Below are positions 20,406 to 61,250 of a stretch of DNA of 64,000 nucleotides, in pieces. Position 1 is the stretch's first letter, and every line of letters starts with the position of its first letter. The notes below the pieces were generated by a model. That model saw nothing but the letters and a program-made list of their open reading frames with translations, made no database searches and was not told the DNA's origin. Source of the DNA: Metabacillus litoralis (GTDB taxonomy: Bacteria; Bacillota; Bacilli; Bacillales; Bacillaceae); the NCBI RefSeq assembly GCF_007994985.1, contig NZ_VOQF01000001.1, positions 186,001 to 250,000 on the forward strand, written 5' to 3'. The translations under genes were made by a program, and so were the position numbers.

Positions 20406-20870
20406 CTACCAAACGGACAGTGTAGTTCTTGTATCATTTTCATTTGTAATATATTCAACACCTTTAAAACCATAATTCAGTACATTATTGTATAAAATTT
20501 CTAGTTTACTTATATCTCTACAGTAGATGCTCACATAGCAACTATCCACAACCAGCAAAACAAGCTCACAATCACTTCGCAAAAACTCATCATAATTGTT
20601 AATCTCTACAATTCTTCCTTTTGGGTGTGCCTGAAGTTCAACAAAAATAAGATAATATCTATTATTTTCTATTAATCTTTTGAAATCAATTCCTTCTATC
20701 ACCTTTTTATTATCAGGGAAAAGATCATTATTCAATTCATTATTCTTTATCTTGTAAGACTCTCCACTCCCGATTTTCCAACTATAAGTAGCAATGTCAA
20801 TTGGCTTTAAAACATCACCAAGAAATGTTCCATATTCATTTGGTAGCTCAAAACTAATTCCACGTTTCAT
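20406..20870 (-). CDS. DUF2691 family protein
   Basis: 154 residues from the ATG at 20870, chosen over the ATG at 20891 because CAGGGAG precedes it at proper distance. MKRGISFELPNEYGTFLGDVL, then YYLIFVELQAHP, FLRSDCELVLLVVDSCYVSIYC and the closing GVEYITNENDTRT recall the DUF2691 family of Bacillus from memory. It is soluble, with no known function. It is separated from the MerR pseudogene by about 70 bases on the same strand; the tRNA-like RNA is upstream on the other strand. Confidence 0.7.
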   Translation of the reverse strand: MKRGISFELPNEYGTFLGDVLKPIDIATYSWKIGSGESYKIKNNELNNDLFPDNKKVIEGIDFKRLIENNRYYLIFVELQAHPKGRIVEINNYDEFLRSDCELVLLVVDSCYVSIYCRDISKLEILYNNVLNYGFKGVEYITNENDTRTTLSVW

Positions 20871-21046
20871 ACAATGCACTCCCTGAATCACTAGTCTCTA
20901 TCATAAATAATAAATAACGCAAATTACTTTAGTCGTTTATGTTGATTTTTGTTTTTTGAGGATAATATAAAAGTAAGCAGTGTGTGAAGGTGTTACTTCA
21001 ACACTTCAAGGTTTAACAACTAAAATTAATAGTGTAGTTAATTTTT

Positions 21047-21074
21047 TTAACAAAGTATAATATATATATATAAT
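21047..21074 (+). promoter_or_regulatory. candidate promoter of the tRNA-like RNA
   Basis: TTAACA (21047-21052) and TATAAT (21069-21074) are separated by 16 bases, inside an alternating TA tract. A second TATAAT lies at 21056-21061 and would place the start a few bases ahead of the RNA, leaving a short leader. Which one is used cannot be decided by eye. Confidence 0.5.
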
Positions 21075-21076
21075 AC

Positions 21077-21271
21077 GCCTCTGTAGCTCTAGAAGGGAAG
21101 AGCGCCGTAAAACATTGTAGAGACGGGTCGCAAGGCAAGGGTTTCAGAAGCACCGAAAAGCAAATAAGCTGAGACAGGTGGAATTCCTGTCGGTGAAATT
21201 CCGTAGGGAAGCGTGTTCTCCCCCTAGCCTATGCTTACGAAAGGAGTGCGGGTTCGAATCCCGCCAGAGGC
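21077..21271 (+). ncRNA. tRNA-like structured RNA with a 124-nt insertion in place of the anticodon arm
   Basis: The ends fold as a tRNA: acceptor stem GCCTCTG/CAGAGGC (21077-21083 with 21265-21271), D stem GCTC/GAGC (21086-21089 with 21100-21103) with a GGG-containing loop, and a perfect T arm GCGGG-TTCGAAT-CCCGC (21248-21264). A short helix CGTAA/TTACG (21106-21110 with 21235-21239) sits where the anticodon stem should be, but it encloses 124 bases. That insert folds: GCAAGGCAAGGG (21130-21141) pairs with CCCTAGCCTATGC (21222-21234), and inside are CACC/GGTG and GACAGG/CCTGTC hairpins. No anticodon is evident. No CCA is encoded; TTTTCTTT follows. It is not recognisable to me as tmRNA or a group I intron. 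Confidence 0.75.
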
Positions 21272-21375: not shown

Positions 21376-21840
21376 TTAATATTTAACAATTGTTGTAACT
21401 CCGTATTCTGTTAAAAAGTTCTTATGACTTAATTCTTCTACCCAATTTTTAGAGTTCAACTGATATGTCCCATATTTATCTTGATATGTAAAACTTCCTA
21501 CATTAATGAAAATTGATTCAGGGTGTTCCGATAATCTGCTTATATAATATTCAACGTTATGTTGATTAGGAAAATGTAAAAGTTCTATAACATCTCCCAC
21601 CTCCATGTACTTTTCCAGGTAGAATAGAAATAACTGTGAATCAGCACCAGTGATTTCATATATATAAGGTAAAGTAAAAAGTCCTTCCACCGATTCTCCC
21701 CATCCATCGGATTCCACTTCTTCAACCCATAATCCCATCACATCTTCTATCCGTTCAAAAACAGTACGATTATTATACTCTTGAATTTCATCGGGAATGA
21801 TAAAAGACTTTGATGATGCTAAAAATGTAATTTCAGACAT
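21376..21840 (-). CDS. hypothetical soluble protein
   Basis: 154 residues, acidic, no membrane segment. I do not recognise the family. Visible pieces are a C-terminal SFTYQDKYGTYQLNSKNWVEEL and the EYGVTTIVKY end; composition resembles small Bacillus immunity or SMI1-like proteins, but no motif confirms that. AAGGGGGATCAG lies before the ATG. It is transcribed convergently to the tRNA-like RNA, whose 3' end is about 105 bases away. Confidence 0.55.
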   Translation of the reverse strand: MSEITFLASSKSFIIPDEIQEYNNRTVFERIEDVMGLWVEEVESDGWGESVEGLFTLPYIYEITGADSQLFLFYLEKYMEVGDVIELLHFPNQHNVEYYISRLSEHPESIFINVGSFTYQDKYGTYQLNSKNWVEELSHKNFLTEYGVTTIVKY

Positions 21841-40342: not shown

Positions 40343-40590
40343 ATAAAAAAGCCACATCCCCAAGAAAAGGGACGTGGTTAACTTTGTGCACGCGGTACCA
40401 CCCTAATTGAAGGAACAATTCCTCCCACTTTACGATTAACGGCTCGTCCGTTCTTTGCTACTATCTTTTTCTTCACAAAGAAAGCTCAAAAACTGTAATT
40501 CGTCATTATCTTTGCGTCGATTTTCACCACCCATCGACTCTCTGTAAGCAGAGAGATAATGACTACTGATTGTCCTGTCATCACTTTTTT
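40343..40590 (-). promoter_or_regulatory. T-box riboswitch, tyrosine specific
   Basis: On the minus strand: AGTAG of the specifier loop, a long stem I with GGTGGTGAA-type distal loop, then GAATTACAG, in which TAC (40495-40497) is the tyrosine specifier codon. The T-box AGGGTGGTACCGCG lies at 40391-40404, and a terminator hairpin CCACGTCCC/GGGATGTGG plus T-run at 40345-40377. All canonical parts are present. Confidence 0.95.
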
Positions 40591-60971: not shown

Positions 60972-61250
60972 CAAAAAAATCCCACCCCCAAGACATCATG
61001 TCTTGGGGACGAGATTTTATAATCGTGGTACCACCCCAGTTTATTAATATGTCACCATATTAATCTTATCAAGTACAAAAATACTATACTTTAGCTCTAT
61101 AACGGGAGCTCCCGTCATACCATCCCCTAAAAGGTTCCGATATGATACTCAGAGGCTTGATTCAATAAATCATCCTTACTCCTTCCCACCAAACGGAGCT
61201 CTCTAGAAAGAATTCAATTTATCTACTCTTCTCTTCAACGTTTTTGATAT
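60972..61250 (-). promoter_or_regulatory. T-box riboswitch upstream of MFS gene
   Basis: On the minus strand: AGTAG, a stem ATAAAT/ATTTAT, then GAATCAAGCC as the specifier-loop 3' side, T-box GGGGTGGTACCACG (61024-61037), and terminator CCCCAAGACAT/ATGTCTTGGGG plus T-run (60972-61018). By the register of the Tyr T-box in this window the specifier is CAA (Gln, 61157-61159); a one-base shift gives TCA (Ser). The T-box itself is certain, the specificity is not. Confidence 0.9.

What the first reader, a model, noticed from the sequence alone, without database searches (positions are those of the whole stretch)
21077..21271. tRNA-like RNA in which a 124-nt structured insert replaces the anticodon arm
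Seen: complete acceptor, D and T arms, a perfect GCGGG-TTCGAAT-CCCGC T arm, and a folded insert with long-range pairing (21130-21141 with 21222-21234) and two inner hairpins, all with promoter-like and T-rich flanks and no protein gene overlapping. Known: tRNA mimics include tmRNA and bacterial Y RNAs (Ro60/Rsr partners), and some tRNAs carry group I introns. The size is too small for tmRNA, I see no tag reading frame, no group I core, and no Rsr gene nearby. So it could be a new tRNA mimic, a divergent Y-like RNA, or a tRNA with a small insert. No CCA is encoded.
Basis: partly seen in the sequence, partly recalled or inferred. Interest (0 to 1): 0.88.

Follow-up and report, generated by a model that had tools for sequence, protein, structure and literature searches.

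The report
tRNA mimic with giant variable arm
This stretch encodes a real, unannotated RNA that copies the shape of a transfer RNA but carries a large extra folded domain; relatives occur in distant bacteria, plasmids and phages, in some groups beside RNA-repair genes, so it may belong to the machinery by which cells and viruses protect or police their tRNAs.

Summary
The finding is real. Window 21077-21271 (+) is a conserved noncoding RNA with tRNA acceptor, D and T arms. One correction: a helix stands in the anticodon-stem position (21105-21126, 14-nt loop); the ~120-nt structured domain sits where the variable arm belongs. A covariance model built from Bacteroidota copies alone finds the window copy at exactly these coordinates (53.9 bits, E 7e-14, one copy in the genome). 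Covariation is strong (32 of 49 pairs with two-sided changes in Bacteroidota); the tertiary Levitt pair covaries (A-U 134, G-C 5 of 143). Copies occur in Bacillales chromosomes and plasmids (including Listeria), Bacteroidota, two Clostridia records, one deltaproteobacterium and phage tRNA arrays. In Bacteroidota, 49 of 52 loci carry at least one RNA-repair-island gene; the 17 Streptomyces phage records found by the RNA in one blastn search all encode a Ro60-like protein. Bacilli-type copies stand alone: Ro60 in 0 of 100 genomes (own and 99 relatives), RtcB not in this one. The window copy matches no Rfam family and is neither tmRNA nor YrlA by the tests made. Best reading: a new, mobile class of tRNA mimic acting as decoy or scaffold for tRNA-handling enzymes; the function is inferred and no transcript was shown.

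The parts
21077..21271 (+). whole tRNA-mimic RNA (195 nt)
   Evidence: R1 covariance model built only from Bacteroidota copies hits exactly 21077-21271, 53.9 bits
21056..21061 (+). TATAAT, -10-like box, ending 15 nt before the RNA
   Evidence: sequence; TATAAT enriched upstream of Bacilli-type copies, mostly starting at -24 to -14
21047..21074 (+). TTAACA-16-TATAAT promoter-like site; its -10 lies so near that transcription from it would start inside the acceptor, so which box is used is open
   Evidence: 3 promoter-like sites found in the region, 1.5 expected
21077..21083 (+). acceptor stem, 5' strand
   Evidence: pairs with 21265-21271; covaries in A2 and A4
21086..21103 (+). D arm (GCTC / GAGC), loop with GGG; A21091 = position 15
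21105..21126 (+). helix H1 in the anticodon-stem position (CCGT/ACGG) with 14-nt loop AAAACATTGTAGAG; no canonical 7-nt anticodon loop
   Evidence: covariation (four pairs; a fifth pair fails in 15 of 28 copies of A4); loop 7-21 nt in relatives
21127..21246 (+). structured domain in the variable-arm position
   Evidence: Rfam's tRNA model leaves 97 nt unaligned between the D and T arms of a phage copy
21130..21136 (+). H2 5' strand (GCAAGGC)
   Evidence: pairs with 21227-21234 (GCCT-A-TGC); H2 covaries
21227..21234 (+). H2 3' strand
21145..21157 (+). core strand 1, CAGAAGCACCGAA
   Evidence: GCAC[CT]GAA in 10 of 10 loci L172-L181 that the R1 genome draws reported
21203..21213 (+). core strand 2, GTAGGGAAGCG; with strand 1 it can form CC-GAA/GUA-GG (loop-E-like; motif recalled, not tested)
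   Evidence: AGGGAAGCG in 8 of 10 loci L172-L181; CC/GG pairs invariant
21158..21202 (+). Bacilli-type subdomain between the core strands (possible hairpins 21159-21170, 21173-21191)
   Evidence: replaced by shorter variable hairpins in Bacteroidota and phages
21248..21264 (+). T arm GCGGG-TTCGAAT-CCCGC; U21247 = position 48
21265..21271 (+). acceptor stem, 3' strand; next base U21272, CCA not encoded

Best explanation
The locus makes a small noncoding RNA of a class for which I found no earlier description: an L-shaped tRNA mimic (acceptor, D and T arms, Levitt pair 15-48, anticodon-position helix with a non-canonical loop) whose variable arm has become a domain of about 85-160 nt around a strongly conserved internal loop (GCACCGAA ... 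GUAGGGAAGCG). Shown here: the structure, its conservation across phyla, its spread on chromosomes, plasmids and phages, and its residence in tRNA arrays and RNA-repair islands in Bacteroidota and phages. Inferred: it is transcribed from its own promoter (Bacillales) or with the array (Bacteroidota, phages), trimmed like a tRNA, and then works as a decoy or scaffold. The tRNA body is bound by a tRNA-handling protein (a tRNA-attacking nuclease, a repair or decay enzyme, or Ro60 where present), while the core domain binds a second partner. Its benefit would be protection or policing of the tRNA pool during RNA damage, phage infection or plasmid conflict. In Bacillales, where Ro60 was not found and RtcB is rare, the partner must be a housekeeping tRNA-binding protein or an incoming tRNA-targeting toxin.
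For: Structure: A2 (32 Bacteroidota copies) 97.4% of cells paired, 32 of 49 pairs with two-sided change, 251 such cells against 65.3 shuffled, slid structures at most 47.1%; mixed alignment A4 94.2% (fitted to the model). Cross-phylum homology: R1 finds Bacillales, phage, Ruminococcus, Acetivibrio and deltaproteobacterial copies at 43-83 bits, with three lower: L116 32.8, L156 19.1, L086 13.2. Levitt pair. Rfam's tRNA model accepts one phage copy, 37.9 bits, threshold 29. Context: 49 of 52 Bacteroidota loci with at least one member of the Band_7, RtcB, TROVE, RlaP, KptA or RF-1/PrfH-like clusters, against 0 of 71 Bacilli-type loci (one to three members per cluster checked with Pfam). In a draw of 247 Bacteroidia genomes all 5 RNA carriers are among the 14 TROVE carriers, the TROVE match 0.7-2.7 kb away on the same strand (p 2.7e-7, or 9e-5 without the two genomes already known). 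The 17 Streptomyces phage records all appear in the Ro-like protein lists. Phage copies lie mostly among tRNA genes (11 of 12 new contigs), in Karp with tmRNA, RNA ligase and kinase. Mobility: a copy in another family is 96% identical while same-genus copies fall to 88%; plasmids.
Against: No expression, processing, binding or phenotype data were available here. No partner is known in Bacillales: TROVE 0 of 100, RtcB 5 of 100 with 2 of those 5 carrying the RNA. Of 34 Bacteroidota carriers searched only 6 have TROVE; of 10 IMG/VR phage contigs there 3 do, one below the cut-off (several are fragments). Many Ro-bearing phages show no copy: R1 finds a full-length copy in 2 of 17 (stricter filters; a third hit is tRNA-sized), and a core pattern finds none with the tRNA frame in all of BRock and Atuin or in the parts read of five others. 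Decoy, scaffold and sensor cannot be told apart by sequence. Sharing an island is not sharing a pathway.
Confidence: 0.5

Rival explanations
1. It is a new structural class of Y RNA: the RNA partner of Ro60/Rsr. The core domain binds Ro60 and the tRNA body recruits clients or nucleases, as has been proposed for YrlA. Bacillales copies would be orphans or would use another protein.
For: 5 of 5 RNA carriers in an evenly drawn set of 247 Bacteroidia genomes are TROVE carriers, with TROVE close by on the same strand; 17 of 17 Streptomyces phage records; TROVE 2.3 kb from the RNA in Acetivibrio.
Against: TROVE is absent from 100 genomes (own and 99 relatives) of which 26 carry the RNA or a piece of it and from 28 of 34 Bacteroidota carriers. 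No YrlA match overlaps the RNA in the window, in the 9 loci or in the 4 of 8 regions that contain it. Separate YrlA-like sub-threshold hits lie in all 8 TROVE regions, so a Y RNA candidate may already be present there; but such hits also occur beside copies in TROVE-less genomes (L046, L063) and some overlap tRNAs. The ends form a tRNA acceptor.
Confidence: 0.2
2. It acts on the ribosome or on EF-Tu: a charged or uncharged tRNA mimic that enters the ribosome and regulates or rescues translation, a tmRNA analogue without a tag.
For: Canonical elbow, acceptor and T arm; CCA is encoded in a few copies (L039, L185); tmRNA genes in some of the same phage arrays; RF-1-domain (PrfH-like, name recalled) genes in 4 of 52 Bacteroidota loci.
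Against: No conserved ATG frame. Acceptor pairs and discriminator vary (A 111, T 28, G 7 of 146), so no acceptor identity for a single synthetase is visible. CCA is not encoded in the window copy, although 198 of 249 tRNAs in the Bacteroidota loci and 92 of 117 in the phage loci examined also lack it (rough test).
Confidence: 0.13
3. It is a precursor of a working tRNA: the extra domain is an intron or insert excised and the halves joined by RtcB or a phage RNA ligase.
For: RtcB in 20 of 52 Bacteroidota loci; RNA ligase and kinase near the phage Karp copy.
Against: The host genome has no RtcB match. The core of the insert is strongly conserved. The H1 loop varies from 7 to 21 nt. No group I match at the RNA.
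Confidence: 0.07
4. It is a decaying tRNA pseudogene or integration scar with no function.
For: Patchy occurrence, and fragments in several genomes (6 of 26 genomes with partial matches only).
Against: Compensatory changes across phyla, a nearly unchanging core, promoter-like boxes.
Confidence: 0.03

Closest known systems
YrlA / bacterial Y RNA (RF02553)
   Same: tRNA-mimicking noncoding RNA found in Ro60/RtcB RNA-repair neighbourhoods (Hughes et al. 2020, PMC7790460, passages read)
   Different: Complete tRNA frame with a true acceptor stem; extra domain in the variable-arm position; no YrlA match on the RNA where tested; occurs without Ro60 in Bacillales and in most Bacteroidota carriers
tmRNA (RF00023, RF04321)
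   Same: tRNA-like acceptor and T arm, large insertion, present in some of the same phage arrays
   Different: Has a covarying D stem and an anticodon-position helix, no conserved ATG frame; only the 17-nt T arm matches the tmRNA models
tRNA (RF00005), class II with long variable arm
   Same: Acceptor, D and T arms, Levitt pair; the Rfam model accepts one phage copy at 37.9 bits
   Different: Variable-arm domain of about 85-160 nt, non-canonical H1 loop; ARAGORN does not see the window copy
GOLLD and ROOL RNAs
   Same: Structured noncoding RNAs of unknown function near phage tRNA islands (PMC12286853, PMC9569102, passages read)
   Different: Much longer (many GOLLD members over 800 nt in the passage; ROOL length recalled); the passages read do not call them tRNA-like; no GOLLD or ROOL match in the 6 phage loci
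tRNAOther pseudo-tRNA of Bacillus cereus
   Same: Non-translating tRNA-like RNA in Bacillus (PMC3399842, start of abstract seen)
   Different: Described there as a predicted pseudo-tRNA flanking a genomic island; no large domain mentioned in what was seen

Membership tests
Y RNA / YrlA | match to RF02553 covariance model | tested here: not met
   no YrlA match overlapping the RNA in the window (E up to 10), in 9 further loci (E up to 1) or in the 4 TROVE regions that contain the RNA, L200-L203 (E up to 0.05)
Y RNA / YrlA | encoded next to a Ro60/Rsr (TROVE) gene | tested here: inconclusive
   met in 5 of 5 Bacteroidia carriers of an even draw; Ro-like gene on the same genome in 17 of 17 phage records; not met in this genome nor, genome-wide, in 28 of 34 Bacteroidota carriers
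Y RNA / YrlA | 5' and 3' ends form the Ro60-binding stem (recalled) | tested here: not met
   ends form a 7-bp tRNA acceptor leading into the D and T arms; whether Ro60 could bind it was not tested
Y RNA / YrlA | binds Ro60 | not testable with these tools
   needs protein and RNA
tmRNA | match to RF00023 over the whole model | tested here: not met
   only model positions 347-363 (T arm), 15.8 bits, threshold 47
tmRNA | tag reading frame | tested here: not met
   no ATG-to-stop frame in the window copy, none conserved (other starts not counted)
tRNA (decoding) | acceptor, D and T arms with tertiary core | tested here: met
tRNA (decoding) | 7-nt anticodon loop with U33 | tested here: not met
   window loop 14 nt; in relatives 7-21 nt beginning A-rich; L039 and L068 have 7-nt loops AAACGGA and AAACGAA without U33
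tRNA with group I intron | group I intron match | tested here: not met
   no such match at the RNA
any Rfam 15 family | gathering-threshold match at the RNA | tested here: not met
   window: none at the RNA. Exception among relatives: the phage copy in L193 matches RF00005 tRNA

The most novel reading that the evidence does not exclude
An undescribed, phylum-spanning and mobile class of noncoding RNA: a tRNA mimic whose variable arm has become an active-site-like domain. Phages, plasmids and bacterial RNA-repair islands would carry it as an RNA factor that shields, senses or redirects tRNA-attacking or tRNA-repairing enzymes, a third kind of bacterial tRNA mimic beside tmRNA and Y RNA.
Probability: 0.6. 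Interest if true: 0.92.

Novelty: new variant of a known kind. Interest (0 to 1): 0.85.

Why it matters
Two natural kinds of bacterial tRNA mimic with studied roles come to mind, tmRNA and Y RNA (recalled). A third, spread over several phyla and mobile, tied to RNA-repair genes and phage tRNA arrays yet able to stand alone in Bacillales, would give a handle on a live question: how cells and phages defend the tRNA pool against anticodon nucleases and other RNA damage. It also gives the tRNA arrays of phages a non-decoding component that can be deleted and tested, and the solo Bacillales copies offer a simple system without Ro60 or RtcB.

Tried and rejected
16S rRNA mimicry: the core word AGAAGCACCG occurs in E. 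coli 16S, but local alignments of a Bacteroidota, a phage and a Ruminococcus copy score at or near chance (191, 88 and 187 of 300 shuffles as high). The window copy aligns to the 16S 690 region with 1 of 300 shuffles as high and Acetivibrio with 16 of 300; this part lies mostly in the Bacilli-type subdomain. Not pursued.

Weak Rfam hits at E up to 10 (PYLIS_4, CRISPR-DR24, plastid UTR, tmRNA models) are chance or the bare T arm. Published Listeria plasmid ncRNAs (Rli28, RatA, NiCo and fluoride riboswitches) are not this RNA as far as the passages read tell. A common neighbour gene on plasmids was not seen (one record had no annotation); among Bacilli-type loci the clusters show only local synteny (e.g. 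the pumilus group). The first MAFFT alignment (A1) mixed strands and was discarded. The blastn printed nothing and was not used.

Limits of the counts: the 125 copies were picked by a core regex, and their acceptor and H1 were located by best pairing, so those counts lean to pairing; the helix counts come from MAFFT columns and the draws from the model. The Bacteroidota group was assigned by record titles and exclusion, its loci are at most 8 kb and related to each other, and gene clusters were made by blastp, so unlinked members are missed. Dropped before counting: L047, L055, L130 (long inserts), L143, L156 (incomplete), L086, L116 (no T arm found by the regex). In one search, 3 of 146 copies could not be parsed. 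R1 also cross-hits ordinary tRNA genes or pairs of them, up to 29.5 bits. The core check covers L172-L181; G100, G107 and G109 were left out as already known, and some of the 10 (e.g. L176, L177) repeat copies already seen. From three 28-nt matches (AbbeyMikolon twice, Nesbitt) were left out of the phage count, which rests on the 17 records; 11 of these match over 42-55% of the query only.

A claim of no earlier description rests on searches in an open-access library only; Chen 2014, Sim 2020 and Burroughs & Aravind 2016 are not held.

Full report
What is there. The 195-nt stretch 21077-21271 (+) has a 7-bp acceptor stem, U8 and A9, a D arm, a helix in the anticodon-stem position (CCGT/ACGG, 14-nt loop), a ~120-nt structured domain and a perfect T arm joined to the acceptor. 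ARAGORN and Rfam at gathering thresholds do not see it; at E up to 10 only the bare T arm and chance-level hits appear. Folding energy alone is unimpressive (z -1.65). No ORF of 60 aa or more overlaps it.

Homologues. blastn finds it in 26 of 100 genomes (own and 99 relatives), 20 of these over positions 1-195 or more and 6 in part; in 11 of 398 genomes drawn from the class, own included, 3 of them by partial matches; and on plasmids (17 records with at least 80% cover; the rows listed with such cover are Listeria, Cytobacillus, Peribacillus, Priestia and Bacillus). The Spirochaetaceae one had no T arm by regex and 13.2 bits with R1. Relaxed patterns added 12 phage contigs, most with the tRNA frame.

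Structure and covariation. In 32 Bacteroidota copies (MAFFT alignment A2, structure written by me) 97.4% of cells pair, 32 of 49 pairs have two-sided changes, and sliding the partners drops pairing to 47.1% or less. A covariance model from these 32 alone (R1) finds the window copy at exactly 21077-21271 with 53.9 bits, one hit in the genome at E 6.9e-14, and phage, Ruminococcus, Acetivibrio and deltaproteobacterial copies at 43-83 bits. The mixed alignment A4 gives 94.2% paired and 41 of 49 pairs with two-sided change, though it was fitted to the model; the fifth H1 pair fails in 15 of 28 copies there. Position 15 and position 48 (Levitt pair) are A-U in 134, G-C in 5, G-U in 2 and unpaired in 2 of 143 parsed copies. 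Rfam's own tRNA model accepts the LuckySocke-type phage copy (37.9 bits, threshold 29) with 97 nt unaligned between the D and T arms. So the RNA is a tRNA mimic whose variable arm, not its anticodon arm, has become the large domain. The H1 loop is A-rich (AAAAC..., AAAAG..., in several phages AAAACGGA or AAAACGAA) and 7-21 nt long. CCA is encoded in a few copies only (e.g. L039, L185).

Core. The domain differs between lineages: a hairpin-rich subdomain in Bacilli-type copies, an extra 10-bp hairpin in Bacteroidota, shorter in Streptomyces phages, an added subdomain in L174, L184 and L185. It is built around two strands, GCACCGAA and GUAGGGAAGCG. In the 10 loci L172-L181 reported by the model-based genome draws GCAC[CT]GAA is present in 10 and AGGGAAGCG in 8. 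Phages Gilson and Forrest keep GCACC and AGGGAAGCG but lose the GAA/GUA pair. The CC-GAA/GUA-GG arrangement resembles a loop-E motif (recalled, not tested).

Context. In Bacteroidota 49 of 52 loci carry at least one of SPFH/Band_7 (38), RtcB (20), RlaP (8), RF-1-domain PrfH-like (4), TROVE (3) or KptA (3); in Bacilli-type loci 0 of 71 do (cluster members checked with Pfam). Several Bacteroidota copies lie in large tRNA arrays (e.g. 19 tRNAs in L091). In an even draw of 247 Bacteroidia genomes 5 carry the RNA and 14 carry TROVE; all 5 are among the 14, with the TROVE match 0.7-2.7 kb away on the same strand (p 2.7e-7, or 9e-5 without the two genomes already known). But of 34 Bacteroidota carriers searched only 6 have TROVE, and a family draw gives 9 carriers of 299. 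The 17 Streptomyces phage records found by the RNA all encode a Ro-like protein; by protein identity I group them into about three lineages. Among 10 IMG/VR phage contigs with the RNA, 3 have a TROVE match, one below the cut-off. The converse fails: R1 with strict filters finds a full-length copy in 2 of 17 Ro-bearing phages, and the core pattern found no tRNA-framed copy in all of BRock and Atuin or in the parts read of five others. In 100 genomes (own and 99 relatives) TROVE is absent and RtcB present in 5, not in the own genome.

Mobility. Same-genus full-length copies are 88-98% identical while a copy in another family is 96%. No shared neighbour gene was seen on the plasmids read.

Mechanism. 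Shown: a tRNA-shaped RNA with a conserved internal-loop domain, kept by selection and present in distant hosts, plasmids and phages. Inferred: processing by tRNA enzymes, and action as decoy or scaffold towards proteins that attack, repair or degrade tRNA. The Ro60 association makes a Y RNA role possible in phages and some Bacteroidota, but the RNA persists where Ro60 was not found, and separate YrlA-like sub-threshold hits lie in all 8 TROVE regions scanned (such hits also occur beside copies in TROVE-less genomes). Hughes et al. [quoted passage not shown] a similar role is the reading favoured here.

Literature. Ten searches of the open-access library, passages of six papers and a term search of one more (PMC2864571) gave no description of this RNA. 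Three directly relevant papers could not be read, so an earlier mention is not excluded.

Noticed in passing
L189 4777-4942 (-), L191 13962-14127 (+): Phage tRNA arrays hold a second ~166-nt tRNA-like gene with an insertion of roughly 75 nt in the anticodon-loop region, similar in the two contigs; possibly a mini-intron or another tRNA mimic.
   Followed up: partly
L186 3877-4000 (-), L196 4292-4410 (-): Further over-long tRNA-model hits in phage arrays (124 and 119 nt; the first read).
   Followed up: partly
L200-L207, L046, L053, L063: Sub-threshold YrlA-like hits (29-45 bits, threshold 69) in TROVE regions and near other copies; possible divergent Y RNAs not caught by Rfam, some overlapping tRNAs.
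   Followed up: partly
L206 2358-2590 (-): manA RNA hit just below threshold (47.8 bits, threshold 55.2) in the LuckySocke-type phage contig.
   Followed up: no
window 40365-40590 (-), 61002-61247 (-): Two T-box leaders (145.7 and 132.1 bits).
   Followed up: no
window 20406-20891 (-): DUF2691 protein upstream of the RNA; the downstream 154-aa ORF (21376-21840) has no Pfam match.
   Followed up: no
L047 1168-1398, L130 152-372: Two Bacteroidota copies carry extra insertions (in the H1 loop, and after the core) that the structure tolerates.
   Followed up: no
L027 with L005 (G020 contig 36), L021, L023-L026: Partial copies beside or without full ones, suggesting repeated gain and loss.
   Followed up: no
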